A stretch of DNA of 64,000 nt from Synechococcus sp. HK01-R. GTDB taxonomy: Bacteria; Cyanobacteriota; Cyanobacteriia; PCC-6307; Cyanobiaceae. The position numbers and the translations under genes are program-made. Below, piece by piece: positions 46,137 through 60,125 of this stretch. The stretch spans positions 2,108,001-2,172,000 of the forward strand of contig NZ_CP059059.1 in assembly GCF_014217855.1 (NCBI RefSeq). The letters run 5' to 3'. Under the pieces are notes generated by a model. The model did not search any database and was not told the DNA's origin. It saw only the letters and a program-made list of their open reading frames with translations. Positions within the stretch are counted from its first letter, which is position 1. Each line of letters begins with the position of its first letter.

Positions 46137-46234
46137 GTCGCCTCACCGTCGGATCTGCCGCAAGCCTGCACACCCCCTGAATCAAGCCGAACGGATCCCT
46201 AGGTTCCGCCTGACCCATGCCGCAGGTTGACCGC

Positions 46235-46969
46235 ATGTTCCGATCAGTGATCAGCACCTTGACGCTCAGCTTGAGCTTGGGCCTGAGCCTGCCTCTGGCC
46301 GCAGACGCCGGCGGATTTCGCACCGGCACCTATCAGACCAAGGATCACTCCAGCAGCAACCGCAGCATCACCTCCGGCATGGAGGAGATTCGCAGTGAGC
46401 GCAGCTACAGCAACAGCCTCAGCGGCAGCAGCCAAGTGGAGCATCTGGGAATGACCATCGCGGGGGATGGCTTCCAGTTGAGCCGACAGGGACAACAGTT
46501 GATCGAAAGCAGCGGAAGCAATGAACTGAGCCAGGGACTTTCGGCGGCTGGCCTCAGCCAGTCGGAGCTGATGAACTGGAGCAGCTCGGCTACCGCCTCC
46601 AGCAGCAGCAGCGTTGACCATGACCTGAAGCTGAAACTTCCCGGCATCGGCCTGCAGAGCCTGATCAGTGATCAGGGTCTACAGGCCATCGACAGCACAG
46701 CGGCTGGGCGCCAAAGCCTCTCTGGTGACGCGATCAGCCTGCAGTCCTCCGATATCGGATCAAGCTCATCGCTGGAGAGCCTGAACGATGGCCTGCAACT
46801 CAACCTCAACGGCAGCCTCGACATTCGAATGGAACGGGGCGGCCAAAACGGCGCTTACACCATGGAGGAATCGGGCCGGCAGCACTTGCATTCGCTGGAG
46901 CGCTTCACCGGTAGCAGCGTGTTCAGCTCGGAGCGCACGGGCCGCGGTGACCTCTTCGCATTCGACTGA
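46235..46969 (+). CDS. Exported Ser-rich protein of unknown function
   Basis: A 244-residue protein with a signal peptide (about residues 1-25, ending PLAADA) and a mature part dominated by Ser, Gly, Gln, Asn and Leu, lacking Cys. Repeated short motifs such as GLQSLIS, SLQSSDIGSSSS and LNDGLQLNLNGSLD suggest a beta-rich or repetitive fold. No family recognised. Its TGA shares a base with the ATG of the next exported gene (TGATG), so the pair is probably cotranslated. Confidence 0.7.
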   Translation: MFRSVISTLTLSLSLGLSLPLAADAGGFRTGTYQTKDHSSSNRSITSGMEEIRSERSYSNSLSGSSQVEHLGMTIAGDGFQLSRQGQQLIESSGSNELSQGLSAAGLSQSELMNWSSSATASSSSSVDHDLKLKLPGIGLQSLISDQGLQAIDSTAAGRQSLSGDAISLQSSDIGSSSSLESLNDGLQLNLNGSLDIRMERGGQNGAYTMEESGRQHLHSLERFTGSSVFSSERTGRGDLFAFD

Positions 46970-47640
46970 TGCAGTGGAGTCGAGACAACAGCGGATGGAG
47001 CCAACCAAAGGGTCTCATCGCGGCAGGTGCCTTAATCGCAGGGCTGCTGGGAGGGCTGGGAATCCAGCCTGGCCGGGTCCTCGCCCAACAGAGCGCCATG
47101 GACGCCGAGCAAAGCAACAACAACCAGGCGATCGCTACCCCGAACAACAACCAAACCAACCAATCGAGCAGCTTCAGCACGGGTGGTGATCTCATTCAGC
47201 AAAACATCAACCCAGCCATCGGCAAGCTGGGGGTGATGACCGTGGGCAAAGGAGGGATCAGTTGCGAATCATCGAGCGTGTATCTGCAGCTGGGCATCTA
47301 CCCTTACGACAATCAGTACTACGCCGTCTTTGACGACAACGTGCGCGACAAGGACTGGATGCCCCAGGGGGCCTTCGGTGTCTCGATTCCCTTTGGTCCC
47401 CAGGTCTCCAGCTGCGTGGAGGCGATCCGCCACCAAACCCGCCAGGTGACGGTCGCCACCGAAGCGGGGGTGCTGCGCCATTGCCTCAGCCTGAGGCCTG
47501 CAGTGCAGGAACTGCAGCTCGCGAAGCAACGGATTGCCCGAGCCTTTCCGATCCTGGCCGATGGCTGCCGTGAGATCTGGGGCCTTCCTCCCGATCCGTG
47601 GGAGTCTGAGGATCAAGCATCGGCTGTAAGTGGGTCCTGA
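46969..47640 (+). CDS. Exported Asn/Gln-rich protein of unknown function
   Basis: A 223-residue protein with a signal/anchor at residues 15-40, an Asn/Gln/Ser-rich linker, and a conserved-looking domain from about residue 80 (GVMTVGKGGISCESSSVYLQ, FGVSIPFGP) with four Cys. No family recognised. The last 155 bp overlap the 3' end of the convergent sigma-factor gene. A stop at 47638-47640 closes it. Confidence 0.7.
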   Translation: MQWSRDNSGWSQPKGLIAAGALIAGLLGGLGIQPGRVLAQQSAMDAEQSNNNQAIATPNNNQTNQSSSFSTGGDLIQQNINPAIGKLGVMTVGKGGISCESSSVYLQLGIYPYDNQYYAVFDDNVRDKDWMPQGAFGVSIPFGPQVSSCVEAIRHQTRQVTVATEAGVLRHCLSLRPAVQELQLAKQRIARAFPILADGCREIWGLPPDPWESEDQASAVSGS

Positions 47641-48442
47641 GCTTGCGCAGGGCGAGCCGCTCCAGGCGCTGCACCTGATAGCGACTCAGGCCCATCCCAT
47701 CAGCAACCTGACTAAGGCTAACCATGTCGCCATCCCCATAACGCAGCGCCAGGATCTGCTGCTCCCGGGCACTCAAACGCCCAATCACCTGGTACAGCCA
47801 CCCATAGTCATCATCCGGCTCCTGAAGCCGGCCATCCCAGACCGTCTCAAGCAGCGAACTACTGGGCTCAGTGGCATCGAGCCGTTGATCCAGCGAAGCG
47901 AGGCGCGAGAGTTGGAGTGCACGCAACACGAAGCGGAGCCGTTCCGGCTTTTCCTCTAATTCCGCTGCGATCGCCTCGATTGAGCCAGAGCGATCGGGGC
48001 CGGAGAGCAACGTATTCACCTTGAAGGCGAGCTGAAGCACGTTGGCGGGAATATGAATGGAGCTGTGCTGCTCATGGAGAAAGCGATTCAACGCCTCCTT
48101 CACCCACCAGAAGGCATAGGTGGAAAAGCGATAGCCACGGGCGGGGTCAAATTTCTGAGCAGCGCGGATCAGCCCAAGATTGCCCGCCTGAACGGCATCC
48201 ATCGGATCGATGCCCAACTGTTGAAGTCGGGAATGGGAACGCTTCACCACCGCCACCACAAGCCGCAGGTTGGCTGTGACCACCCGGGAGAGAGCCCGCT
48301 GCCCACTGCGAATGCGTCGAGCATCAGGGGCAGCGTCACGGCGCCAGGACTGGATCAATGTGCCCAGATGAATCTCCTCCGCAGTCGTCAGCAAGGGGGA
48401 GCCGGCGATCTGGCGCAGGTAATCCGTGAATGCATCGGCCAT
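47486..48442 (-). CDS. Alternative sigma-70 family factor
   Basis: A 318-residue group 2/3-type sigma factor. Region 2 contains LRLVVAVVKR ... GNLGLIRAAQKFDPARG and YRFSTYAFWWVKEALNRFL; region 4.2 contains LSQVADGMGLSRYQVQRLERLALRKL. The WWVKEALNRFLHEQ stretch diverges from the RpoD consensus, as in the type II factors of marine picocyanobacteria. About 60 residues past region 4.2 form a basic low-complexity tail overlapping the convergent exported-protein gene. Start at ATG 48442. Confidence 0.9.
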   Translation of the reverse strand: MADAFTDYLRQIAGSPLLTTAEEIHLGTLIQSWRRDAAPDARRIRSGQRALSRVVTANLRLVVAVVKRSHSRLQQLGIDPMDAVQAGNLGLIRAAQKFDPARGYRFSTYAFWWVKEALNRFLHEQHSSIHIPANVLQLAFKVNTLLSGPDRSGSIEAIAAELEEKPERLRFVLRALQLSRLASLDQRLDATEPSSSLLETVWDGRLQEPDDDYGWLYQVIGRLSAREQQILALRYGDGDMVSLSQVADGMGLSRYQVQRLERLALRKLRTHLQPMLDPQTPTDREEGPRSHGSHRPGSERLGQSVASRAAVPALQASG

Positions 48443-48598
48443 CAGAGCCACCAGCAGGGACTGCAACAGGTTCTGATTGCGGGAGCGAGACGTCCATGCA
48501 CTTTCGCGACACCGGAGCGGTGATGCCTCAGATCACCAGCAGGCGGGGATTCCAACCAGGCCAGCAACACAGGATCAGGCGAGTGAACCAAGCCAGCC

Positions 48599-49123
48599 AT
48601 GAGAGAGCCTTCCAGCGGCCCTGATGTGCACACCAGCAGCCCAGGCCATCGCATCCGCCAGTCAGGCATGGGGCAGCGAGGGCGGCTGGACCCCTTTGTG
48701 GAGACCCGCAAACCCAAAGAACACAGCTGCTGCCCCCACTGCGGAGCCACCGTCCACCAGGGACGCTGGAGCTGGCATCAGGCCTTGGAGCGTGCAGCCG
48801 CCCTGACCTGTCCAGCCTGCCGACGCATTGCCGAACGCCTACCGGCCGGGGAACTCAAGCTCAGCGGCCCCTTCCTCGCCGAACACCATGACGAGGTGAT
48901 GCAGCTGCTGCTGCACAACGAGCAGCGCTATCGCTCGGAACACCCTCTCGAACGCCTGATGTGGATCGAGAGCAATGACCTCAGCGGAGCCACCGTGATT
49001 GCCTTCAGCGGCCACCACATCACCCGGGGTCTGGCTCAGCGGCTTCAGGATGCCTACGGCGGTTGCCTTAGCGGCGACAACGTCCCTCCCGGCAGCATGC
49101 TGCAGCTTCACTGGCACCGTTGA
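48599..49123 (+). CDS. BCAM0308-family zinc-ribbon-like protein
   Basis: A 174-residue protein with CPHCGATVHQGRWSWH and CPACRRIAERLPAGEL, two CxxC pairs that probably bind zinc, followed by DEVMQLLLHNEQRYRSEHPLERLMWI. The pattern fits the BCAM0308 family, of unknown function and often associated with stress genes. ATG at 48668 is an alternative start that omits a low-complexity leader. Confidence 0.8.
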   Translation: MREPSSGPDVHTSSPGHRIRQSGMGQRGRLDPFVETRKPKEHSCCPHCGATVHQGRWSWHQALERAAALTCPACRRIAERLPAGELKLSGPFLAEHHDEVMQLLLHNEQRYRSEHPLERLMWIESNDLSGATVIAFSGHHITRGLAQRLQDAYGGCLSGDNVPPGSMLQLHWHR

Positions 49124-49221
49124 GCAGGGCGCAGTGGCCTGCATGGCAGCGCGGCAAAGGCTGGGCAGATCCGTAGAACTGGCTGGAATCAGCAGAAGCT
49201 TTGGCTTGGCTGAGCGAGTGA

Positions 49222-49545
49222 ATGCATCCCGCCATGACCCACCCGCACTGCCAGACCTGCAGCTTCTGGGACCAGGCCCACGGGCTGGAGCGAACCAGCC
49301 TCGGCGCCATCGCCCCATGCACCCGTCACGCCCCCAGACACTTCCACCTGGAGACGATTGCGCTGACGGGCTCACCTCCCGACCTTCAGGCCTTTCTCAA
49401 TCACGACAACAGCATCGATGACCTGCAGATTCCGATGGCGATCTGGCCCTACACCAGTCGCAACCAGATGTGCGGTGACTACAAGCCCTGCGACCTGGAA
49501 GAAGGGGTGAGGCGACACCGCATGCAATCCGCCCCGCTGCTCTAA
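49222..49545 (+). CDS. Hypothetical Cys-rich protein, 107 aa
   Basis: Contains CQTCSFWDQ, CTRHAP and QMCGDYKPCD, that is five Cys in pairs, a pattern that suggests a metal- or cluster-binding protein. A short Arg-rich end follows. No family name recognised with confidence. It lies in a plus-strand run between the BCAM0308 and DUF3175 genes. Confidence 0.65.
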   Translation: MHPAMTHPHCQTCSFWDQAHGLERTSLGAIAPCTRHAPRHFHLETIALTGSPPDLQAFLNHDNSIDDLQIPMAIWPYTSRNQMCGDYKPCDLEEGVRRHRMQSAPLL

Positions 49546-49552
49546 AACAAGC

Positions 49553-49861
49553 GTGCAACACGACACAAGACACGACTGGGCCGCGGAGGTGAACCGCCGC
49601 CCACCAGTGCTAGATCTCGAACCAGGCCTCTTTACCTGGAAGCAGCCGGAGCGGATCGCCGCCTCGCTACTGCGCTCGGCCCAACAAAGTCGCGCGCGGA
49701 AGCGCAGTGTGTATGGCAGTGCCATGGCCATGCTCTGCCTCTACATCAACCGAGCGGGCCGCAAGCTCCCGTCCGGTCAACGCCTGGTGCTCAACCAGGC
49801 GAAGCACTGCCTAAGGGAGCAGTCCGGTCGCCTGGCGCACCTTGACTTCGTAGAAGGTTGA
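49553..49861 (+). CDS. DUF3175 protein, 102 aa
   Basis: Matches the DUF3175 family: LDLEPGLFTWKQPERIAASL, RSVYGSAMAMLCLYINRAGR and LVLNQAKHCLREQ. Small, basic, of unknown function and widespread in soil and marine bacteria. The start is GTG at 49553, 7 bp after the previous gene. Its last 71 bp overlap the convergent phosphoribosyltransferase gene. Confidence 0.8.
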   Translation: MQHDTRHDWAAEVNRRPPVLDLEPGLFTWKQPERIAASLLRSAQQSRARKRSVYGSAMAMLCLYINRAGRKLPSGQRLVLNQAKHCLREQSGRLAHLDFVEG

Positions 49862-50486
49862 GAACGTCACGATCGCTGAGCTGTTCAAAGCGCTCATACC
49901 AGAGGCCGACTGCAGACAGGTGATCCACCAGACGCAAGACCTCCAGACGGTCGACATGCAGACGCATGGTCTCCTCTAAGGAGCGATCCATCACCGGAAC
50001 GGCCAGGGTGAGCAGCGATGGCCGGGCCAGGCGCAAGGACTGAAGCGCCGCTAGCACCGTCATGCCGGTGGCAATCCCGTCATCAACCACGATCAGATGG
50101 TGATTGAACAGGCGACCGAGGTCGGGGCCATCGAACAAACAATGGCGACGCTCCAGCTCCTCCTGGGCGTTGAGTAGCCAATCCTGGGCCTGGGGAAGCA
50201 TGGACCAGGCTGGATCACCGGGCTCATGGCGCCAGAGCACCACGCCCTCTCCAGCCACAGCACCAAGGGCAAGTTCTGGCCTGGAGGGCTCGACAATTTT
50301 GCGCACCGACCAGGTGAGCAGTGGCAGATCTAAGCGCTGCGCCATTGCAGCCGCCACAGCGACACCACCACGGGGAAGGGCTACCAAACAGGTATCAGCA
50401 CGGGCTCCAGCACAGTCCTGCAGGCATTCGGCAAGCGCCAGACCAGCCTGATGGCGATCGACCCAAACGGGAGCTTGATGATCCAT
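49791..50486 (-). CDS. Phosphoribosyltransferase
   Basis: A type I PRTase-fold protein of 231 residues with the PRPP-binding loop LIVVDDGIATGMTVLAAL and VALPRGGVAVAAAMAQ near the N-terminus, as in predicted PRTases of stress clusters. Substrate is not evident. MDHQAPVW at 50486 is the chosen start (frame opens at 50498). Convergent, overlapping the DUF3175 gene by 71 bp. Confidence 0.85.
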   Translation of the reverse strand: MDHQAPVWVDRHQAGLALAECLQDCAGARADTCLVALPRGGVAVAAAMAQRLDLPLLTWSVRKIVEPSRPELALGAVAGEGVVLWRHEPGDPAWSMLPQAQDWLLNAQEELERRHCLFDGPDLGRLFNHHLIVVDDGIATGMTVLAALQSLRLARPSLLTLAVPVMDRSLEETMRLHVDRLEVLRLVDHLSAVGLWYERFEQLSDRDVLNLLRSQGAPGDRTAPLGSASPG

Positions 50487-50568
50487 GACGACAAACAATT
50501 GAGAGGTCTGGATCTGACCTAGGTCTGGCAGGAAGACAGCAGGAGAGGCGGCCCGGGAATGCTGCGGA

Positions 50569-51756
50569 TCAGGTGGAGGCCAGCAGCCGCAGCTTGCGCA
50601 ACAACAGCCCCATCACCGTGCCCCTCCGAATCACGAGATCGGCATCAAGCTCCATCCCGGGGCGCAGAACACAGCGACGCTGCCCGCGCACCAAATGATC
50701 CGCGACAGGGCTGATCGTGACGGCATAGCGACCGTCAACGGCATCAGCAGCGATGGCCTGGATGCGCCCGTCCAGCACCCCAAAATCCGTGTGTGGGCAA
50801 CTGCCCACGCGCAAATAAGCCCGCTGGCCAGACTTGAGCGGCGCCACATCTCGAGAGGGAAGCTGAACCTTGATGGCCAGGGGCTGGCCCTTTGGAGCCA
50901 GGGTGGCCACCACCTCCCCGGGTTGGAGCACCTGGCCCGGGTAACGCAGCTTGGTCTCCACAACCGTGCCATCCACTGGCGCTAGAAGGCGGGACTGCTG
51001 TCGAGCCAGGGCGGTCTCTCGGAGCCGACCATCCACAGCCGCCAGTTGACGCTCCAACTCAGCACGGGCACTGATCGTGGCACTGAGGGACTGGCGCAAA
51101 CGCGCCTGCTCGGCCTGCAGTCGGGCCCGCTGCTCACCGACCCCAAGGCGTGCTTGATCGAGTTGGCTTTTAGCGACTGCGACGCCGGCCTCCTTCTCCT
51201 CAAGAAGCAGCTGGGGGATGGCCCCCTCCGCGGCCAAGCCGCGGAGTCGCTGAAGCTCCCGATCCTGGAAACGGGAACCAGCAAGCGCCTGGGCGACCCC
51301 ACCGCGGGCCGTCGCGATCTGAGTTGTCATCAACCGATGGATGGATCGGGATTGGGCCTGCAGATCGGTGAACTGTTGAGCAGCCTGGTGAAGCTGCTCC
51401 TGTAGCTGCGCGCGCTCACGCTGCAGTTGGCGCTGTTGAGAGTTAATCGCCTCGAGATCCAACTGGGCGAGCAGTTGACCGGCCCGCACCTGTTGATTGG
51501 GGGACACGAGCACCCGCTGAAGGCGACCACCACCAAGGGCCTGCACGGGAGAGTTTTCGCCCCGCGGCCGCACACTGCCAGGAGCTCTGACCGACTCATC
51601 AAAGGGCCAGACGCAAGCCAGCAACAGCAGCGCCGCTCCAGCGGCGGCTGTTCGCACACCCAACTGGTGAGCCCAAGCACCTGGAGGTGGCAAAAACTCA
51701 TCGGCTGCAGCAGGGGGCAGCTGATGGGGCACGTGATGGAGCGGGGTTGTCATCAA
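50569..51756 (-). CDS. HlyD-family membrane-fusion protein of a peptide exporter
   Basis: Periplasmic adaptor of 395 residues. One N-terminal helix (about residues 35-50), a lipoyl-like half beginning VRAPGSVRPRGENSPVQALG, a long coiled-coil hairpin (about 105-245, Gln/Arg/Leu-rich), the second lipoyl half LLAPVDGTVVETKLRYPG and a beta-barrel region. It links the inner-membrane ABC transporter to an outer-membrane channel; no TolC gene is in the window. The start overlaps the transporter stop by four bases, so the two are coupled. Confidence 0.93.
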   Translation of the reverse strand: MMTTPLHHVPHQLPPAAADEFLPPPGAWAHQLGVRTAAAGAALLLLACVWPFDESVRAPGSVRPRGENSPVQALGGGRLQRVLVSPNQQVRAGQLLAQLDLEAINSQQRQLQRERAQLQEQLHQAAQQFTDLQAQSRSIHRLMTTQIATARGGVAQALAGSRFQDRELQRLRGLAAEGAIPQLLLEEKEAGVAVAKSQLDQARLGVGEQRARLQAEQARLRQSLSATISARAELERQLAAVDGRLRETALARQQSRLLAPVDGTVVETKLRYPGQVLQPGEVVATLAPKGQPLAIKVQLPSRDVAPLKSGQRAYLRVGSCPHTDFGVLDGRIQAIAADAVDGRYAVTISPVADHLVRGQRRCVLRPGMELDADLVIRRGTVMGLLLRKLRLLAST

Positions 51757-53942
51757 GCCACCTGCAGGAAGGGAGACACAGGGGCGTGATCACGCAGCAG
51801 TCGAGGTGTGTTCTGCGCCAGCACCTTTCCCTGCTCCAGATAGATGATCCAGTCGGCCCGAATGATCACCGAAGGGCGATGACTAATGAGCACGGTGGTG
51901 CGCCCCTTGCGCTGCTCCAGCAACGTCTCCATCAAACGGCTCTCGAGCACAGGGTCGAGGGCGGAGGTGGCTTCATCGAGGATCAACACAGGCGGATTGC
52001 TAATCAGAGCCCGGGCAATCGCCAAGCGCTGACGCTGACCGCCGGAGAGATTGGCACCGAACTCGCCAAGCACAGTGCGATAACCATCGGGCAACTGGCG
52101 AATGAAATCATCAGCAAGGGACAGCTGACAGGCCTCCACCACTCGCTCAAAACTGACCCCAGGATGGGCAAAGGTGAAATTGTCGAAAATTGAACGATTG
52201 AAGATGATCGACTCCTGGGGAACCAATACAACCTGGGCACGAAGACAATCCAGCGAAAGATCCTGACTGTTGAAAGGCCCGTAATGAAGGGTTCCATGAT
52301 CTGGGGGATAGATCCCAGCAAGAATCTTGCTAAGGGTGCTCTTGCCACACCCGGATTCGCCCACGAGGGCCGAGGTCAAGCCACCGGGAATCATCAGGGA
52401 AAGATCCTGCAAGAGCGGGCGACGACCAGGGTGGTTGTAGGTGATGGCTTCACAACGAATGGATGCATCAGCCGGAATGGCAACATCACAACCGGAGCCA
52501 CTGCCAAAAGCCTCAGCTTTACGCTCAAGCACATCACTCATGCGCCGGATCACCACATCGGCGAGTAATAACTCCTGAGTGATGCCACTGAGGGAAGCCA
52601 GAAGCCCGAGCACATTGGCACCGAAGCCATTGAACGCCAGCAACTGACCAATCGAGAGCTCCCGCGCAATCACGAAGGAACTGCCATACCAGAGCAACGC
52701 CACAGTGATCACGCTGCCTAAAGCACCGGTCAGCGTGGATTCAGTCAGTTGTAAACGCAATTCACGCCAGGCGAGGTGAGACATGCGTCCAAAATTGCTC
52801 TGGTATTCCTGCCAGGCCTGAGCGAAGGCATCACTGGTTTTAAGCACACTCGCACCACGAAACAGTTCCACCAAAAAGCCTTGGTTATCAGCAGAGCGAA
52901 CAAGCAGTTCCTGGGAAGCGGCCTTCAAAGCAGGAAGAAAAACCAGACTGCAGGCAATCACCACTGAATAGCCGACCAAAGCCGCCAGGGTCAGTTGCGG
53001 GGAATAGGCCCACATGAACAGGAGCGAAATCAATGCGATACAGAACTGACTGGGTAGCCCCAGCACAACGGAACCGATCAGACTGTTCACGTGCTCGATA
53101 TCTCCGATTCGGCTCACCGCCTCACCGCTACGGTGCGTTTCGAAATAGCGGAGCGGAAGCAGCAACAACTGACGGCCGTAATGCATCACCATCTGGAGCT
53201 GCAGCTTCTGGCCGAAATAGCCCACCAAGTGCCCCTGGAGTTGCCCGATCAAGGAACGAAAACCGAAGAGCAGCATCAAGCCAAGGCAAAGACTCACGAG
53301 CATGCGCTGATCACCCCGAACCAAGACGTCATCGGTGAGCAATTGCATCAGCAGTGGCAACCCCAGAGACATCAAGCCCACCACGACATTGAGCAGAAGG
53401 GCCTGAAACAACAAGCGCCGAAAGGGAACGACGTAGCGCAGCAGGACGGCAAGGGCATGGCTCGGAGCCTCAGAAGTGTCCGGTCGGCGTGCAGGATCGG
53501 GCTCCAGAAGCAACACCACGCCATCATTCCAATGCTGAAGGAAACGCTCGCGACTTAGACGGCGCAGGCCAACAGCAGGGTCGGCGATCAAGACTTCGTC
53601 ATCCACAAGGCGATGGAGGACAACCCAGTGCTGACCATCCCAATGACAAATCAAAGGGAGAGGCACCTCCTGTAGTGCATCAAGAAATCGTTCAGGGGCC
53701 CTAGCGGCACGGGCCGTGAAACCAAGCTGCTCCGCACCCCGTCGTAGCCCAAGCAACGTTGTGCCGTTACTGGTCGTACCAACGGCATCGCGAATCAATC
53801 CCTGAGAAAGCGTGATCCCATGGGCTTTGGCCACCGTCGCCAGGCAGGCGGCACCGCAGTCCTCCTCATCGAATTGACGAACACAGGGATAGTTGTTCCA
53901 GTGATTGACAAACCACCGAAGCAAGAGTTTTGGGCTCCGCAC
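51753..53942 (-). CDS. C39-peptidase ABC transporter for double-glycine peptides
   Basis: A 729-residue peptidase-containing ABC transporter. The N-terminal C39 domain has Gln23 and catalytic Cys29 in QFDEEDCGAACL, catalytic His105 in GQHWVVLH and Asp121 in IADPAVG. A six-helix transmembrane domain (about 165-440) is followed by an ATPase with Walker A GESGCGKST near 528 and LSGGQRQRLAIARAL near 630. It should cleave a double-glycine leader and export the peptide. Two candidate substrate genes lie directly upstream; an adaptor gene lies downstream. The architecture matches PteB of Synechococcus elongatus and microcin exporters; direct orthology is inference. Confidence 0.94.
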   Translation of the reverse strand: MRSPKLLLRWFVNHWNNYPCVRQFDEEDCGAACLATVAKAHGITLSQGLIRDAVGTTSNGTTLLGLRRGAEQLGFTARAARAPERFLDALQEVPLPLICHWDGQHWVVLHRLVDDEVLIADPAVGLRRLSRERFLQHWNDGVVLLLEPDPARRPDTSEAPSHALAVLLRYVVPFRRLLFQALLLNVVVGLMSLGLPLLMQLLTDDVLVRGDQRMLVSLCLGLMLLFGFRSLIGQLQGHLVGYFGQKLQLQMVMHYGRQLLLLPLRYFETHRSGEAVSRIGDIEHVNSLIGSVVLGLPSQFCIALISLLFMWAYSPQLTLAALVGYSVVIACSLVFLPALKAASQELLVRSADNQGFLVELFRGASVLKTSDAFAQAWQEYQSNFGRMSHLAWRELRLQLTESTLTGALGSVITVALLWYGSSFVIARELSIGQLLAFNGFGANVLGLLASLSGITQELLLADVVIRRMSDVLERKAEAFGSGSGCDVAIPADASIRCEAITYNHPGRRPLLQDLSLMIPGGLTSALVGESGCGKSTLSKILAGIYPPDHGTLHYGPFNSQDLSLDCLRAQVVLVPQESIIFNRSIFDNFTFAHPGVSFERVVEACQLSLADDFIRQLPDGYRTVLGEFGANLSGGQRQRLAIARALISNPPVLILDEATSALDPVLESRLMETLLEQRKGRTTVLISHRPSVIIRADWIIYLEQGKVLAQNTPRLLRDHAPVSPFLQVA

Positions 53943-53965
53943 GATTCAGATCATCAGCAAAATAG

Positions 53966-53995
53966 AAAACCCAGCTGCGGAAAAATCCACAGCTG
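53966..53995 (-). terminator. Hairpin between peptide gene 1 and the transporter
   Basis: On the minus strand a nine-pair stem (53972-53995, one G-T wobble) around a T-rich loop is followed by GGGTTTT (53966-53971). Read-through would be needed for the peptide promoter to reach the transporter, which suggests peptide excess over exporter. Confidence 0.6.
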
Positions 53996-54003
53996 AGCAA
54001 GGT

Positions 54004-54285
54004 TCAGGAAAAACTACGAATCGAGGCACGATTACGCATGAGTCCGTTAAACGAAGTCGCCGATGAACCCAATGCAGCAAATGCGATCGAGTTGGCAAAA
54101 TTCGCCTGATTATTGAGAGCAACAGTGTTGTCTAGATCAATAGCAGGAGCAACGGTGGTAGCGATCCTGGGCGAGATGGTAGTCGTCGTACGAGGCGAAA
54201 TATTGGTTGTGATGCGCGGCGAGATGGTAATCAACGAGCCGCCACCACCAATCACTTCGGCCTGGCAATCAGTGAGAGTTTCCAT
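54004..54285 (-). CDS. Secreted peptide precursor 1 with double-glycine leader and ISPR repeats
   Basis: A 93-residue small protein. Residues 1-15 read METLTDCQAEVIGGG, a short leader that ends in Gly residues and carries hydrophobic residues at -12 (Leu4) and -4 (Ile12) if cut after Gly15. The proposed mature part (78 residues) contains three tandem octads beginning ISPR (residues 21-44), rich in Thr, then a small-residue and Asn/Ala-rich tail ending in Arg/Ser. No Cys remains after the leader. It lies 61 bp upstream of its presumed exporter, with a terminator in between. Function unknown; bacteriocin, microcin-like or biofilm signal are all possible. Confidence 0.75.
   Translation of the reverse strand: METLTDCQAEVIGGGGSLITISPRITTNISPRTTTTISPRIATTVAPAIDLDNTVALNNQANFANSIAFAALGSSATSFNGLMRNRASIRSFS
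54154..54225 (-). repeat. Three 24-bp coding repeats in peptide gene 1
   Basis: Three consecutive 24-bp units code for the octads ISPRITTN, ISPRTTTT and ISPRIATT. Codon positions vary less at the ISPR part than at the Thr-rich part. The array could change copy number without loss of frame. Confidence 0.75.
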
Positions 54286-54291
54286 GTTTAA

Positions 54292-54320
54292 AAGAATAAA
54301 AGGGCGGCACGAGGCCGCCC
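54292..54320 (-). terminator. Terminator between peptide genes 2 and 1
   Basis: On the minus strand the stem GGGCGGC/GCCGCCC with a five-base loop (54302-54320) is followed by TTTTATTCTTTT (54290-54301). It lies between the peptide 2 stop and the peptide 1 start, only 6-7 bp ahead of the latter. Confidence 0.8.
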
Positions 54321-54334
54321 AGTTGAACCAGAAA

Positions 54335-54577
54335 TCAGGCGTCCTGACCGAGAAGAATCAGGCCAATGTTGCCCTGGGAGTTACCACCGGACATAGCCGA
54401 AGAACGGTTACGTGCAACAGCGCGGTCAGAACTGTAGTTCTTGCCATAGTTGACAGCAAATGCAGCCTGACGGGTGGACCGAGAAGCACCACCCCAGCGA
54501 CGATCGCGACCATTGCCACCACGTTCACCACCCTGGAGGGTCTCAGCGTGGAGATCAGAAATCAGTTCAAAAGTCAT
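54335..54577 (-). CDS. Secreted peptide precursor 2 with double-glycine leader, Arg/Gly-rich
   Basis: An 80-residue precursor starting at the ATG at 54577. The leader MTFELISDLHAETLQGG ends in Gly16-Gly17, with Ile6 at -12 and Leu14 at -4, aligning with the leader of peptide 1. The mature 63 residues begin ERGGNGRDRRWGG and are basic, Gly/Ser/Asn/Arg-rich with a hydrophobic GLILL near the end; no Cys. First gene of the peptide pair on the minus strand. An upstream in-frame ATG at 54601 is possible but would lengthen the leader abnormally. Confidence 0.72.
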   Translation of the reverse strand: MTFELISDLHAETLQGGERGGNGRDRRWGGASRSTRQAAFAVNYGKNYSSDRAVARNRSSAMSGGNSQGNIGLILLGQDA

Positions 54578-54805
54578 TGAGAACGATCCAAAAAGGAACA
54601 AAGAAGAGGCGCGCGCCCCACACAGTCATAGGTAAAACAACCACAAGCAACTCACCCATCAACAGAAACGCAGCTAAACATCAGCAGATCAACGTCACAC
54701 CAAACTGAAGATCAGATCAGCAGCCGAAACGCTGCATCGTCGCAGCGACTTAAAACCACAATTGCAAATAAGATTCAGTTGTCGAGCAAACAGCTTCAAC
54801 GTTCC
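54578..54805. other. Divergent intergenic region of the peptide locus
   Basis: 228 bp, noticeably A/T-rich, separating the peptide gene on the minus strand from the ribbon-helix-helix gene on the plus strand. Promoters for both are expected here; a possible short inverted repeat CGCTGC...GCAGCG (around 54729-54746) could be an operator. No gene is evident. Confidence 0.4.
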
Positions 54806-55066
54806 ATGAACAACCGTATTCGCGTGCTGCAAAGACAACCAAAGAGGATCTCGATCACGCTCAGCCACAACGTTCATGATGCCCTGCTCACCCGTTCAGA
54901 AGAAGAGGGACGATCCGTTTCAAACCTCTGCGCATTTCTACTCGAAGAAGCGCTACGCGATCCGTTACGCAATGGCCAGGCCAACATGAGCTATGGCCAG
55001 GGCAATGGCCACCAACAAACCCTCGCCGGCAAACATCCACCCGGCAACAAACCCCGTTATTTCTAA
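54806..55066 (+). CDS. CopG-like ribbon-helix-helix protein
   Basis: An 86-residue protein with a ribbon-helix-helix fold at residues 14-50 (RISITLSHNVHDALLTRS, EGRSVSNLCAFLLEEAL) and a Gly/Asn/Gln-rich tail. Likely a DNA-binding regulator. It is transcribed away from the peptide genes. A related protein lies at 61592-61795. An upstream TTG at 54779 would add nine residues. A terminator follows. Confidence 0.75.
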   Translation: MNNRIRVLQRQPKRISITLSHNVHDALLTRSEEEGRSVSNLCAFLLEEALRDPLRNGQANMSYGQGNGHQQTLAGKHPPGNKPRYF

Positions 55067-55075
55067 ACAGGGAAA

Positions 55076-55105
55076 AGCCCCGACTCCATCTGTCGGGGCT
55101 TTTTT
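55076..55105 (+). terminator. Terminator of the ribbon-helix-helix gene
   Basis: Stem AGCCCCGAC/GTCGGGGCT (55076-55100) with a seven-base loop, then six T residues. Confidence 0.9.
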
Positions 55106-55123
55106 GTGGCCGCACGTGACAAC

Positions 55124-56227
55124 TTAGACCGTTGGACGCAGAACAAGCTGCCAGAGCTGACCATGACGGGAGCGAAAAAAACCAGCACATGCCAGCAGAT
55201 AGTATCGCCACATCCTGAAGAAATCCTCACTCAGCCATCCTCTAAGGTGCGGCCATTGTTCCTCAAAATTCATCCACCAAGCCAACAGTGTTTGCTCATA
55301 ATGCGGACCATAGTTCTCCCAACTTTGAAGATCAAACATACCTTCAAGACCCCTGGCAAGCTGCGAAGGGGAAGGGAGTCGTCCCCCAGGGAAAATATAA
55401 CGGTCAATCCAGGGGTCCGCTTGATTAGAAAAAACAAAGTGTCCGATGGTCTGAAGCATAAGCAAGCCTTCTGGGTCGAGCATCTGCTTAAGAACTCGAT
55501 GAAAATTACTGTGGTTAGATGGCCCCACATGCTCAAACATTCCAACCGATACAATCCGGTCGAAGCGATCAAGGCCGAGCGACGGAAGAGCTCGGTAATC
55601 AGCGAGAATCACCTCAATCGGAAGATCGGAATAATGATCACGGACATGGCAATACTGCCGCGATGAAATGGTGATTCCAGTTCCGATGACGCCGTAATGC
55701 TCGCAGGCAAACGCCAATAATCCACCCCATCCACAGCCCACATCTAACAAGCGCTGTCCCGGTTGAAGCTGCAACTTGCGGCAGATCAGATCAAGCTTGC
55801 GCTCCTGGGCCTGATCGAGATTGTCACCCTCTTGCCAGATTGCACAACTATAAATCCTGCGACGATCGAGCATTGCCGTGTAAACACGGGGATCGATATC
55901 GTAGTGAATCTGGCCAACGCGAAAGGCGCGATGAATCGCCTGGGGGTTCAATAACCATTCCTGAAAACGGATCCAGGCCTCACGTACCCCCATCAACGGA
56001 CTAGCTTCCAATTGCCGTCGAGCACGCAACAACCTGGAAATCAGCTCGGGCAGATCATCACAATCCCAATCACCGGATACATAGCGTTCCCCAAGTGCAA
56101 GCCCACCACGCTGAATCAGATCCGATAAAAAAGCCTGATCATGCACATGGATGTCATGGGATCTTGCACCATCAAAGCGAACATCTGCAAGCGAAGACAC
56201 CTGCTGAAGAAGAACTGGAAGTGTCAT
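55124..56227 (-). CDS. cfa: Cyclopropane-fatty-acyl-phospholipid synthase family
   Basis: A 367-residue CFA/mycolic-acid-methyltransferase family enzyme with SAM motif LLDVGCGWGGLLAFACEHYG, EHVG and QTIGHFVF, and an N-terminal region for lipid binding (ARSHDIHVHDQAFLSDLIQRGG). It adds a methylene bridge to unsaturated phospholipid chains or a related methyl transfer. More A/T-rich than neighbours. Ends 18 bp after the terminator of the regulator gene. Confidence 0.92.
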   Translation of the reverse strand: MTLPVLLQQVSSLADVRFDGARSHDIHVHDQAFLSDLIQRGGLALGERYVSGDWDCDDLPELISRLLRARRQLEASPLMGVREAWIRFQEWLLNPQAIHRAFRVGQIHYDIDPRVYTAMLDRRRIYSCAIWQEGDNLDQAQERKLDLICRKLQLQPGQRLLDVGCGWGGLLAFACEHYGVIGTGITISSRQYCHVRDHYSDLPIEVILADYRALPSLGLDRFDRIVSVGMFEHVGPSNHSNFHRVLKQMLDPEGLLMLQTIGHFVFSNQADPWIDRYIFPGGRLPSPSQLARGLEGMFDLQSWENYGPHYEQTLLAWWMNFEEQWPHLRGWLSEDFFRMWRYYLLACAGFFRSRHGQLWQLVLRPTV

Positions 56228-56341
56228 GCAGAGGACTGAAGAGCTTCATAAGAAAACCATATTTGAAAGCATTCATTCAGCCCTTGCATCGCTTTCGCAG
56301 CAGACCACCAGCAACGCTGAATCCCCATCAATTCATGGCGA

Positions 56342-56776
56342 CTATTCAATGGGAATCCTGACCGCATCGGTCTCGATGGCCCCCGCCTTTCTTGGAATCG
56401 TGATCGTGAGCTCACCATTCACACAATGGGCCTTGACTGCTTGCAGGTCGGCATCATCCGGCAGCGTAAAGCTACGACTAAAGCTCCCGTACTGACGCTC
56501 TACCCGATGAAAGCGGGGGTGTTTCTCCTCCTTCTCTTTCTTCCTCTCACCCTGAAGTGTGAGGCGGTCTCCGGAGACCATGACCGACACATCATCACGA
56601 CGCAGTCCGGGAAGATCAACCTTGAATTGATAGTTTCCATTGGCCTCATAAATGTCCACGCGTGGCCCCCATTCATTCCATGGCATGGTGGCCGTATAGG
56701 GAAACGACGGCATGGCAAGGGCTTTGTCCATGATCGCTTCGATGTCATTAAGCGGTTCCCACTTGATCAAGCTCAT
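56342..56776 (-). CDS. Small heat-shock protein, Hsp20 family
   Basis: A 144-residue alpha-crystallin-domain chaperone with PRVDIYEANGNYQFKVDLPG, VSGDRLTLQGER and the C-terminal block VKAHCVNGELTITIPRK followed by IRIPIE, an I-x-I anchoring motif. Together with the cfa and SpoIIAA-like genes it gives a stress-related context. Confidence 0.94.
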   Translation of the reverse strand: MSLIKWEPLNDIEAIMDKALAMPSFPYTATMPWNEWGPRVDIYEANGNYQFKVDLPGLRRDDVSVMVSGDRLTLQGERKKEKEEKHPRFHRVERQYGSFSRSFTLPDDADLQAVKAHCVNGELTITIPRKAGAIETDAVRIPIE

Positions 56777-56878
56777 GACGTCACCTCAAAGAGGATGCAG
56801 TAGACCTTTTCAAGTTATGGGTACACACGAGGTCTGGAGAACGCCGTCACCGATCTGCAGTAGCAGCACAGCATGGAA

Positions 56879-57604
56879 TCAGTCACGACAGATCCATTCC
56901 TGAGCCTCAAGCATTCGTCCCCCCGTGAAAAGATGCACCTTGGGTTCGGCGAACCCAGCGACGAGACGCTGCACCAGTTGCTGCCAAGCCTCAGCAGTGA
57001 CCACGGCAAGTCGGCTTGGTTGCTGCCGGTAAGAATGAATCAGCCGTAGGTGATCGCGCAGACCACTCAAGGCCAGCCAACCATCAAACTGCCGCAGATC
57101 CACCAGCACACGCGGTCGTTCACCAGCACTGAAGAGGCGAGAGAGATCATCCTCGATCCGAAGGTATGAGCCCCGGTCGAGTGAGCCAATCAAAGTAACC
57201 GTAATCACATCACCGGCACGCTCGAGATGAATCGTTCCAAGCGATTCACTCAACCAGCGACGTGCCTCCTCAAGAGCATGGAGGGGGAATACACGCACCG
57301 GACAGGGGAGGATGAGGCCCATGGCGTGCATGGCATGACGCAGCAAGGGAAGATCCGTAACAACAGCGAGACGCTCAAAGCCATCCCAATGCCGCAAGCC
57401 GAGAGTCGCGTCATCAAAGGCCGCAGCCGCACTGAAGCGCTGGAAATCTGAATCAAACACGATCAACGCTCGCACCCGATCGTTCTCCAACAGATTCGAT
57501 TCGATCGTGGGCACAACGACCGCTTGCATCTCGCTTTCACTCACCTGTCCGCTGCAACGAAAGCCCACGGTTGCTGAGGGCAGATCCTCGATCAGCTCAA
57601 TCAT
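56879..57604 (-). CDS. Double SpoIIAA-like (PF11964) protein
   Basis: A 241-residue protein that appears to be two tandem SpoIIAA-like (STAS-type) domains: residues 1-120 (VGFRCSGQVSESEMQAVVVP, FERLAVVTDLPLLRHAMH) and 125-241 (TVTLIGSLDRGSYLRIEDD, SRLAVVTAEAWQQLVQR). The repeated AVVT strand in both halves supports an internal duplication. Such proteins are of unknown function, possibly lipid-related. Divergent from the PEBP gene. Confidence 0.78.
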   Translation of the reverse strand: MIELIEDLPSATVGFRCSGQVSESEMQAVVVPTIESNLLENDRVRALIVFDSDFQRFSAAAAFDDATLGLRHWDGFERLAVVTDLPLLRHAMHAMGLILPCPVRVFPLHALEEARRWLSESLGTIHLERAGDVITVTLIGSLDRGSYLRIEDDLSRLFSAGERPRVLVDLRQFDGWLALSGLRDHLRLIHSYRQQPSRLAVVTAEAWQQLVQRLVAGFAEPKVHLFTGGRMLEAQEWICRD

Positions 57605-58565: not shown

Positions 58566-60125
58566 ATGCGCGTGTTGTTGCTCTATCCGCAGTTCCCGAT
58601 CACTTTCTGGAGCCTGCATGGAGCGCTGGAATTACTGGGGAGGAAGGTGCTTCTGCCACCTCTAGGTCTGATCACCGTGGCGGCATTACTGCCAGAGCGC
58701 TGGGAGTTGCGACTGGTGGACACCAACATCCGTCCGGTGAGCCTCCAGGACTGGGCCTGGGCGGATCTGGTGATCGCCTCCGCCATGCTCGTGCAACGCC
58801 ATCACCTGGCGCAGCTCATTCGCAGCGCCAAGGAACACCAGCTACCGGTGGCCGTGGGTGGTCCCTTTGCCACGTCGACGCCGGATGCAGCGGAGTTAAG
58901 AGAGGCGGATTATCTGATCCTCGATGAAGGGGAAATCACGATCCCGCTGTTCTTGAAGGCCCTCGAACGAGGTCAGAAACAAGGACTATTTAAAGCGAGC
59001 GGTGAACGACCGGATGTGCAGACATCACCGATCCCACGTTTCGATCTACTCGACCAGCAGCACTACAGCCTGATGGCTGTGCAGTTCTCGAGGGGCTGCC
59101 CGTATCAATGCGAATTCTGCGACATTATTGTTCTCTACGGTCGCAAGCCTCGCACCAAGGAACCATCGCAGCTCTTGGCTGAATTCGACTGTTTATACCG
59201 CTTGGGATGGCGTGGCGAAATCTTCCTTGTTGATGACAATTTCATCGGCAACAAACGCAATGTGAAGCGGCTGCTGCCAGTGCTTCAGCACTGGCAGCGC
59301 ATCCACAACTGGCCCTTCAGCTTCACCACCGAAGCCTCCCTGGATCTCGCACAAGATGAGGAGCTAATGATCGCCATGGCGATGGCAGGCTTCAAGCGTG
59401 TATTTCTCGGGATTGAAACTCCCGATCAAAACAGTCTCAAACTCACACACAAAGATCAGAACACACGCCACCCCCTAGACCAGGCTGTCGTTGCCATCAC
59501 CGCCTATGGCCTGGAGGTGATGGCCGGATTCATCCTGGGCTTTGATGGCGAAACAAGCGGAGCCGGAGATCGCATCGTGCAGTTCATTGAACGCACCGGG
59601 ATCCCCCTCGCCATGGTGGGCATCCTCATTGCGCTCCCGAACACCGCCCTGTGGGATCGACTGCAAAAGGAAGGACGGCTGCTGGAGAGCAGCGATGGAT
59701 TTGATCAGGGGGTGCAGACCCACCTGCTCAACTTCCGCACGCAGCGGCCGATGCCGGAGATTGCTGGGGAGTTTCTTGAGGCCTTCTCCGCTCTCTATGA
59801 CCCTCACGCCTATCTCGAGCGGGTGTATCGCTACTGTTGCGCCCTTGATGCGGGCCGACGACGCATCAGCAGCGATCAGCGTCAAGGCCGGAATTGGAAT
59901 CAAGGCTCGGTGCTACTGCGTGGGCTGACCATTCTCTGCTGGCGCCAAGGGCTCCGACGCAAGACGCGCTGGCTGTTCTGGAAACGCTTGATTCAAATCA
60001 GCACACAGCATTCTCTGGTGCTGGGGGAATATCTCTGGCTCTTGATGCTCAATGAACATTTCATCTCCTATCAAGCAAGCATGAAAGATCAGGTGCAACA
60101 GCAGCTCAAACTACTTGCCACCTGA
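58566..60125 (+). CDS. B12-binding-domain radical SAM protein
   Basis: A 519-residue protein with an N-terminal cobalamin-binding-like Rossmann domain (MRVLLLYPQF, LVDTNIRPVSL, VAVGGPFAT) and a radical SAM domain whose cluster motif CPYQCEFC gives Cys178, Cys182 and Cys185. A C-terminal helical region follows (DUF4070-like). Related proteins modify hopanoids, chlorophyll-like molecules or lipids; substrate unknown. No partner genes of a known pathway are adjacent. Confidence 0.88.
   Translation: MRVLLLYPQFPITFWSLHGALELLGRKVLLPPLGLITVAALLPERWELRLVDTNIRPVSLQDWAWADLVIASAMLVQRHHLAQLIRSAKEHQLPVAVGGPFATSTPDAAELREADYLILDEGEITIPLFLKALERGQKQGLFKASGERPDVQTSPIPRFDLLDQQHYSLMAVQFSRGCPYQCEFCDIIVLYGRKPRTKEPSQLLAEFDCLYRLGWRGEIFLVDDNFIGNKRNVKRLLPVLQHWQRIHNWPFSFTTEASLDLAQDEELMIAMAMAGFKRVFLGIETPDQNSLKLTHKDQNTRHPLDQAVVAITAYGLEVMAGFILGFDGETSGAGDRIVQFIERTGIPLAMVGILIALPNTALWDRLQKEGRLLESSDGFDQGVQTHLLNFRTQRPMPEIAGEFLEAFSALYDPHAYLERVYRYCCALDAGRRRISSDQRQGRNWNQGSVLLRGLTILCWRQGLRRKTRWLFWKRLIQISTQHSLVLGEYLWLLMLNEHFISYQASMKDQVQQQLKLLAT

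What the first reader, a model, noticed from the sequence alone, without database searches (positions are those of the whole stretch)
51753..54577. Double-glycine peptide export locus with two precursor genes and no modification enzyme
A C39-peptidase ABC transporter (catalytic Cys29, His105, Asp121 seen) and a coupled HlyD-type adaptor gene sit directly downstream of two small genes, all on the same strand, whose N-termini end in Gly-Gly. The window contains no LanM, radical SAM peptide enzyme or other modifier near them. Synechococcus elongatus uses a similar C39 transporter (PteB) and adaptor (EbfE) to export EbfG proteins that control biofilm formation, so a secreted signal or microcin-like peptide is the natural hypothesis. 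The peptide sequences themselves look unlike any class I recognise.
Basis: partly seen in the sequence, partly recalled or inferred. Interest (0 to 1): 0.85.

Follow-up and report, generated by a model that had tools for sequence, protein, structure and literature searches.

The report
Picocyanobacterial exporter with its own peptides
A marine-type cyanobacterium carries a small-peptide export machine together with two short secreted peptides of an unnamed family that travels with one branch of such exporters; they probably act outside the cell, but their role is untested.

Summary
On the minus strand lie precursor A (54335-54577), precursor B (54004-54285), a C39-peptidase ABC exporter (Cys29/His105/Asp121 align with PCAT1) and an overlapping HlyD gene. 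No modifying enzyme is adjacent. Neither precursor matches Pfam or NCBIfam credibly.

Relatives reveal a specific system. Tandem precursors with homologous leaders stand upstream of related exporters in other genera of the family. Their cores share a paired Q-x-N motif, mostly 18 or 21-22 residues apart: 26 of 36 non-redundant cores, 0.36 expected. The 19 exporters of cargo-bearing genomes in the tree form one clade. Terminator-like hairpins follow 25 of 53 precursor genes (4.3 expected). An alternative sigma gene lies within 22 kb in 12 of 12 genomes that have both on one contig; G127 lacks it.

The EbfG/PteB analogy holds only in general: PteB falls outside this clade, mature EbfG parts show no detectable homology, and EbfE is described as a processing peptidase. 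The window's cores are atypical (one Q-x-N each) and fast-changing: 32-39% identity to the sister genome, exporter 88%.

Most likely: unmodified secreted peptides, matrix or surface role first, bacteriocin second. Function is untested.

The parts
54335..54577 (-). Precursor A, 80 aa; leader of 17 aa ending GG, core of 63 aa with one Q-x-N (QGN); core net charge +6
   Evidence: ORF; leave-out family HMM E 0.0014; leader identical in 15 of 15 aligned codons to sister genome G193, core 32% identical; charge
54004..54285 (-). Precursor B, 93 aa; leader METLTDCQAEVIGGG, core of 78 aa with SPR repeats and one Q-x-N (QAN)
   Evidence: ORF; leave-out family HMM E 2.8e-10, core-only HMM E 0.0024
51753..53942 (-). 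C39-peptidase ABC exporter (PCAT type), 729 aa
   Evidence: Pfam; PCAT1 alignment; clade
50569..51753 (-). HlyD-type periplasmic adaptor, overlapping the exporter stop (TGATG)
   Evidence: Pfam HlyD_3 E 1.2e-15; sequence; a match in 31 of the 33 stretches L061-L093 fetched round relatives' exporters
54302..54320 (-). Terminator-like hairpin between A and B (possible attenuator)
   Evidence: a stem at the same place in G193
53969..53998 (-). Terminator-like hairpin between B and the exporter (possible attenuator)
   Evidence: G193 has a stem of different sequence at the same place
47486..48466 (-). Alternative sigma-70 family factor, recurrent neighbour of the locus (possible regulator)
   Evidence: Pfam Sigma70_r1_2, r2 and r4; linkage
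54779..55066 (+). Ribbon-helix-helix (RHH_5) protein, divergent neighbour (possible regulator)
   Evidence: Pfam E 4.9e-10; found in 6 of 11 neighbourhoods compared

Best explanation
The locus is a dedicated, modification-free type I export system with its own cargo. Precursors A and B are made in the cytoplasm. The C39 domain of the exporter cuts them after Gly-Gly while the ABC-HlyD complex, with a TolC-like outer-membrane channel encoded elsewhere, exports the cores. The hairpins after A and after B probably let many transcripts stop early, so that cargo is made in excess of exporter. The locus is probably switched on with neighbouring stress genes (alternative sigma factor, Hsp20, RHH protein). 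Outside the cell the Gly/Ala/Ser/Asn-rich, almost Cys-free cores most likely act as several related peptides together, in the manner of EbfG proteins, as surface or matrix (self-associating) material. Shown by computation: the gene set, the conserved C39 residues, the cargo family and its link to one exporter clade, the hairpins, the neighbourhood. Inferred: cleavage, export, attenuation, regulation, and above all the extracellular role.
For: Exporter and adaptor domains and C39 residues. Two OEP/TolC-type proteins over the cut-off in the genome. Cargo family: 53 GG ORFs upstream of exporters in the window's family of genomes, collected by leader and position only; paired Q-x-N in 26 of 36 non-redundant cores, shuffle mean 0.36, maximum 3 in 2,000; dN/dS 0.07-0.32 in 9 of 13 ortholog pairs, so they are real genes. 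Cargo and exporter go together: 20 of the 23 genomes with cargo hits, G045 removed, have the exporter; two of the three exceptions keep decayed exporter fragments beside the cargo; the 19 exporters of cargo-bearing genomes form one clade, SH-aLRT 100 in a quick tree without bootstrap. Hairpins after 25 of 53 precursors against 4.3 expected from shuffles and 4 of 68 stretches inside exporter genes. Sigma gene within 22 kb in 12 of the 12 genomes with both on one contig, 9 of them within 3.5 kb. Cys in 2 of 51 cores, which argues against lanthionines or disulfides. Precedent: EbfG1-3 form amyloids (PMC9981879, sections 7 and 8 read).
Against: The extracellular role is by analogy only: EbfG cores are not detectably homologous; the published EbfG amyloid hotspot A[FI]NI[GS] occurs in 0 of 36 cores and the looser A[FI]NI in 2 of 36 (43 of 2,000 shuffles reach that); curli-like QxGxxN in 0 of 36. 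AlphaFold gives no fold (mean pLDDT 53.4 and 50.6). In the window each core has only one Q-x-N, core A is not recovered by the core-only HMM, and core A has dN about 1.14 against dS 0.96, which fits relaxed or diversifying change better than a conserved structural protein. Two further pairs (G200/G227, precursors 1 and 2) have dN/dS 0.93 and 1.20. 28 of 53 precursors show no terminator-like hairpin by the test used. Regulation: G127 has the locus inside a 152-kb contig and no match to the sigma gene, and the gene also occurs in genomes without this cargo (53 of 241 have it), so linkage is not proof of control.
Confidence: 0.4

Rival explanations
1. Unmodified class II-like bacteriocin (microcin-like) pair: A and B are secreted to inhibit related picocyanobacteria, and their cores diversify in an arms race while the leader and exporter stay constant.
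For: In the syntenic sister genome G193 the exporter is 88% identical (dN 0.08) and leader A 100%, but core A is 32% identical (dN 1.14) and core B 39% (dN 0.81). Small-residue repeats [GAS]xxx[GAS] are somewhat enriched (3 of 500 shuffles reach the count). Two of 51 members have a weak Lactococcin G-beta hit, best E 0.0072. Most non-redundant cores are net positive. Patchy: convincing precursor B matches in only 2 of 31 genomes of the genus, some of them incomplete.
Against: No immunity-type gene was seen beside the precursors; strict GxxxG is not clearly enriched (57 of 500 shuffles reach the count); in other genera orthologous cores are mostly constrained (dN/dS 0.07-0.32 in 9 of 13 pairs); up to four paralogs per locus, more than a two-peptide bacteriocin needs.
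Confidence: 0.29
2. Secreted signalling peptides: the cores are pheromone-like cues sensed by neighbours, with the exporter as a ComA/PCAT-like processor.
For: Exporter matches ComA and PCAT1; fast-changing cores with a constant leader would fit specificity groups; a LuxR-type response regulator (by my reading) recurs in 4 of 11 neighbourhoods.
Against: Cores of 40-80 residues are long for pheromones; no histidine kinase or receptor was seen among neighbours shared by four or more of the 11 neighbourhoods.
Confidence: 0.13
3. Cargo in decay: the exporter is kept for other substrates and A and B are degenerating in this lineage.
For: Each window core has one Q-x-N instead of two; core A dN about equals dS; precursor loci with broken exporters exist in G107 and G159.
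Against: Both reading frames, leaders and hairpins are intact in two genomes; exporter dN/dS is about 0.04 (dN 0.08, dS 1.92); no other family member was found in the genome by the family HMM.
Confidence: 0.13
4. Modified peptide (RiPP) system whose enzyme is encoded elsewhere, for example by the B12 radical SAM protein at 58566-60122.
For: A radical SAM/DUF4070 protein lies about 4 kb away.
Against: It is on the other strand beyond five genes; within the flanks read (up to about 6 kb) the only match near other exporters was 28% identical, in L080, a locus without this cargo, and none was found in the part of G193 in view; 2 of 51 cores have any Cys.
Confidence: 0.05

Closest known systems
EbfG1-4 / PteB of Synechococcus elongatus PCC 7942
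   Same: Tandem GG (or GA) precursors of about 80-95 aa directly upstream of a C39 ABC exporter with a HlyD gene nearby; similar leaders (hhalign probability 95.7)
   Different: Exporter 52% identical and in another part of the tree; mature parts not detectably homologous; HlyD about 0.5 kb beyond PteB and not overlapping; no match to the sigma gene at E 1e-40
Group III cyanobacterial 'bacteriocin' clusters of Wang, Fewer and Sivonen 2011 (PMC3140520)
   Same: Short-type C39 ABC exporter without CAP_ED, HlyD, several precursors, no second ABC protein
   Different: The paper (abstract and Results read) reports very little core conservation; here one exporter clade has one recognisable cargo family with a paired Q-x-N motif
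PCAT1 / ComA peptidase-containing ABC exporters
   Same: Same domains; C39 residues aligned with PCAT1
   Different: Gram-positive systems, as recalled, lack the HlyD/TolC path; cargo not compared
CTB family bacteriocin (NF038167) and Nif11/NHLP precursors
   Same: Double-glycine leaders in cyanobacteria
   Different: Window precursors do not hit these models; 3 of 51 family members hit NF038167, best E 0.0017
Curli and other functional amyloids
   Same: Q/N/G/S/A-rich cores with regularly spaced Q and N
   Different: No Curlin hit among the Pfam families listed, QxGxxN in 0 of 36 cores, different export route

Membership tests
Group III cyanobacterial double-glycine export cluster (Wang et al. 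2011) | Short-type exporter: C39 + ABC membrane + ATPase, no CAP_ED | tested here: met
   729 aa; C39, ABC_membrane and ABC_tran over their cut-offs, no cyclic-nucleotide domain listed
Group III cyanobacterial double-glycine export cluster (Wang et al. 2011) | HlyD present; no second, peptidase-less ABC gene; no SurA/rotamase in the cluster | tested here: met
   HlyD; the 12 neighbouring proteins scanned with Pfam show no ABC or rotamase domain
Group III cyanobacterial double-glycine export cluster (Wang et al. 2011) | Exporter falls in their clade III | tested here: inconclusive
   Their tree was not re-run; PteB, whose genome has one group III cluster in their Table 1, is in the tree but outside the window's clade
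PCAT-type exporter | Cys, His and Asp of the C39 domain | tested here: met
   Cys29, His105, Asp121 aligned with PCAT1
EbfG family | Homologous mature region | tested here: not met
   28 of 200 permutations as good; core HMM best E 3.5
EbfG family | Amyloid hotspot A-phi-N-I-pi | tested here: not met
   Strict form in 0 of 36 non-redundant cores
EbfG family | Secretion needed for biofilm; amyloid formation | not testable with these tools
   Needs wet work
CTB, Nif11 and NHLP precursor families | Model hit of the window precursors | tested here: not met
   No such hit for A or B
Two-peptide class IIb bacteriocin | GxxxG motifs in the cores | tested here: inconclusive
   37 observed against 30.8 expected, 57 of 500 shuffles reach it
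Two-peptide class IIb bacteriocin | Adjacent immunity gene | tested here: inconclusive
   None seen between precursors, exporter and HlyD, nor among neighbours of 80 aa or more shared by four or more of 11 neighbourhoods; shorter ORFs were only looked over by eye
Curli | Curlin repeat QxGxxN | tested here: not met
   0 of 36; no Curlin hit listed

The most novel reading that the evidence does not exclude
Paired Q-x-N peptides are a new family of self-associating extracellular peptides of planktonic picocyanobacteria, exported by their own exporter clade, usually in two to four versions at once, and produced under stress through the linked alternative sigma factor: an independent counterpart of EbfG in cells usually thought of as free-floating.
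Probability: 0.28. Interest if true: 0.72.

Novelty: new variant of a known kind. Interest (0 to 1): 0.5.

Why it matters
Cyanobacterial double-glycine clusters have been filed as bacteriocins with hardly conserved cores. A cargo family that can be recognised by sequence and maps onto one exporter clade gives a handle on function: one can predict which exporters carry it, express several related cores, and ask whether picocyanobacteria use such peptides for sticking together, competing, or signalling under stress. It also shows that such loci need not be EbfG homologs.

Tried and rejected
EbfG homology of the mature parts: not supported. Curli-like repeat: not supported. Pfam and NCBIfam assignment of the precursors: nothing credible; I take the NCBIfam threonine ammonia-lyase hit of B (E 0.007, 15 bits against a cut-off of 421) as chance. 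Structure: AlphaFold models of B and of a typical member have low confidence, so no fold search was run. Search with precursor A alone: 12 of 300 genomes hit; G000 and G193 are the locus itself, the other ten (E 8e-4 to 0.007, open frames of 76 to 676 codons) were not followed. Search with precursor B alone in the genus: 8 of 31 genomes hit at E 1 or better, only G000 and G193 convincingly (the rest E 0.1 or worse). The genome-contig scan with the exporter gave nine loci: six cyanobacterial (46-56% identity), several with other GG ORFs upstream and none with the paired Q-x-N cargo in what was listed, and three distant proteobacterial ones. An empty-site comparison was dropped: the neighbouring cyclopropane synthase is found in only 2 of 31 genus genomes. 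G045 was removed from the cargo count because its hit lies in what I read as a Nif11-type protein. Three of the 54 collected GG ORFs (L014:5407-5772, L063:4484-4711, L065:2927-3172) were left out of alignment A1; one search repeats the motif test with the L063 and L065 rows included.
Full report
WHAT IS THERE. The window is part of a 2.48 Mb single-contig genome (G000:C1:2108001-2172000). On the minus strand, in transcription order, lie precursor A (54335-54577, 80 aa), precursor B (54004-54285, 93 aa), a 729-aa C39-peptidase ABC exporter (51753-53942) and a HlyD-type adaptor whose ATG overlaps the exporter stop. Pfam finds Peptidase_C39, ABC_membrane and ABC_tran in the exporter and HlyD_3 in the adaptor; nothing in A or B. 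NCBIfam gives no credible family for A or B. The best-scoring solved structure is PCAT1; Cys29, His105 and Asp121 align with identical residues there (their catalytic role is recalled). Two proteins elsewhere in the genome match the OEP/TolC family over its cut-off.

THE PRECURSORS ARE A FAMILY. I fetched the surroundings and collected small ORFs upstream that carry a GG leader, without asking for any core motif: 54 rows, 53 of them from loci of this family. One to four stand upstream of the exporter in each locus that has them. Of the 53, 51 were aligned (A1): GG is invariant and two Q-x-N motifs are nearly invariant. On 36 non-redundant cores the pair Q-x-N...Q-x-N occurs in 26, against a shuffle mean of 0.36 and a maximum of 3 in 2,000 shuffles. 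The spacing is mostly 18 or 21-22 residues. Two of 51 cores contain a cysteine.

LEAVE-OUT TEST. An HMM from the 47 members outside the window's genus ranks the four precursors of the window and of G193 first to fourth among 1,518 ORFs. The core alone recovers window B and both G193 precursors but not the core of window A. Each window core holds one Q-x-N, not two. The window's cargo is a diverged version of the family, which is a point against a strict structural role of the pair.

CARGO AND EXPORTER GO TOGETHER. The family HMM hits 24 of 300 genomes. One (G045) is a Nif11-type protein by my reading. Of the other 23, 20 have the exporter ortholog. The remaining three are G059, G107 and G159, all 80-89% complete: G107 and G159 keep short exporter-like stretches beside the cargo (51% identity over residues 5-84, and 74% over residues 19-45), G059 has none in the stretch read. 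Conversely 12 of the 32 exporter-bearing genomes show no family hit (G037, G062, G076, G099, G121, G158, G168, G195, G212, G262, G292, G293); in some the contig ends just upstream (G168, G293), in others no such ORF is seen (G099, G121). In a quick maximum-likelihood tree of 60 exporters, the 19 from cargo-bearing genomes form one clade (SH-aLRT 100, no bootstrap), apart from 10 exporters of the same family without this cargo and from all others. G074 was left out because its exporter is cut short, and G180 was labelled by precursors on other contigs. In a class-wide search (388 genomes) strong HMM hits fell only in G000, G193 and G064, all of this family; five further genomes had weak hits (E 0.0015-0.009). 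Of these G045 is the protein named above, and the four outside the family show other GG peptides, one of them (L135) with a single Q-x-N.

COMPARISON WITH S. ELONGATUS. Genome G335 contains, upstream of a 52%-identical exporter, four ORFs that include the three peptides which Parnasa and co-workers report as likely N-termini of secreted EbfG1, EbfG2 and EbfG4 (PMC4997328, passages and one section read; match). I take it as the ebfG-pteB locus. Its exporter groups with other cyanobacteria and not with the window's clade. The leaders resemble each other (hhalign probability 95.7) but the mature parts do not: 28 of 200 column permutations reach the observed score, and the core HMM gives at best E 3.5. 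That paper itself says mature EbfG proteins show no homology to proteins of other cyanobacteria.

EVOLUTION. G193 shares the neighbourhood (72-88% identity for the eleven genes tested). The exporter is 88% identical with dN 0.08 and dS 1.92. Leader A is identical in all 15 aligned codons; leader B is 53% identical. Core A is 32% identical with dN 1.14 and dS 0.96; core B is 39% identical with dN 0.81 and saturated dS. Elsewhere the cores are mostly constrained: of the 13 ortholog pairs, nine have dN/dS 0.07-0.32, two (G200/G227, precursors 1 and 2) 0.93 and 1.20, window/G193 A 0.87, and B is saturated. So these are real genes, but in the window's lineage the cargo changes far faster than the machine.

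EXPRESSION SIGNALS. Hairpins followed by T-rich tails stand after A (54302-54320) and after B (53969-53998) (12 such sites in 50300-55200 against 6.7 in shuffles). The same is true after 25 of 53 precursors, against 4.3 expected from base shuffles and 4 of 68 stretches inside exporter genes; stems at the same place differ in sequence between genomes. This suggests repeated attenuation, giving more cargo than exporter. No sigma-70 consensus promoter was found in 50300-55200.

NEIGHBOURHOOD. The alternative sigma factor at 47486-48466 was sought in 24 genomes: 23 relatives, 22 with cargo plus G293 (exporter only), and S. elongatus. In 12 it is on the same contig as the locus (as the precursors in G180, as the exporter in G293), always within 22 kb and in 9 cases within 3.5 kb. 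In 8 it is on another contig of a fragmented assembly. Four have none: G107, G159, S. elongatus, and G127, whose locus lies inside a 152-kb contig, so there the link is broken. In G099 and G121, which have an exporter outside the clade, the best match (39-42% identity, perhaps another paralog) lies more than 1 Mb away. In 11 neighbourhoods of 14 to 36 kb an Hsp20 gene is found in 7, the RHH protein in 6, a P-type ATPase and a PEBP protein in 5 each. The sigma gene is not restricted to cargo-bearing genomes (53 of 241 have it). In the window's genus, cyclopropane synthase and precursor B are found only in G000 and G193 of 31 genomes, and so is the exporter ortholog among the genus members sampled, so this is a block shared by these two.

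MECHANISM AND FUNCTION. Synthesis, cleavage after GG, and export through ABC-HlyD-TolC follow from the families involved. What the cores do is not settled. A matrix or surface role is favoured by the many tandem versions, the G/A/S/N-rich, nearly Cys-free composition, the lack of a visible immunity gene, the stress neighbourhood, and the EbfG precedent of amyloid formation (PMC9981879, sections 7 and 8 read). A bacteriocin is favoured by the rapid core change in the sister pair and by the patchy distribution. AlphaFold is uninformative.

NOVELTY. The kind of cluster is known (group III of Wang et al., PMC3140520: abstract and Results read). I saw no description of this cargo family in the listings of searches, which cover only open-licence PMC papers, or in what I read of four papers; supplementary tables could not be read, and individual precursors may be listed there. 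I therefore rate it a new variant of a known kind.

Noticed in passing
L079 and L081 (3.7 and 4.2 kb downstream of the exporter start), L088, L089, L153:3802-4050: Another group of GG peptides with an N[FYW]GQ[FY] motif near exporters of the same family that lack Q-x-N cargo, and in G107; possibly a second cargo family.
   Followed up: no
window 46217-46966: Ser-rich 250-aa protein with a signal-peptide-like start (by eye) and no Pfam family, next to another family-less protein at 46969-47637.
   Followed up: no
window 47486-57604: Cluster of stress-type genes (sigma factor, phosphoribosyltransferase, RHH, cyclopropane fatty acid synthase, Hsp20, SpoIIAA-like); several recur in shuffled order round the locus in other genera.
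   Followed up: partly
L158:4785-5054: Orphan GG peptide with a VSPSISVSPTI core recalling the SPR repeats of precursor B, close to what I read as a CsbD-like gene; no exporter match in that stretch of G218.
   Followed up: no
L151 and L152: Exporter genes reduced to short fragments while precursor genes remain readable beside them, in G107 and G159.
   Followed up: partly
window 58566-60122: B12-binding radical SAM protein with DUF4070 on the plus strand, about 4 kb from the precursors; not seen near the other loci within the flanks read, apart from a 28% match in L080.
   Followed up: partly
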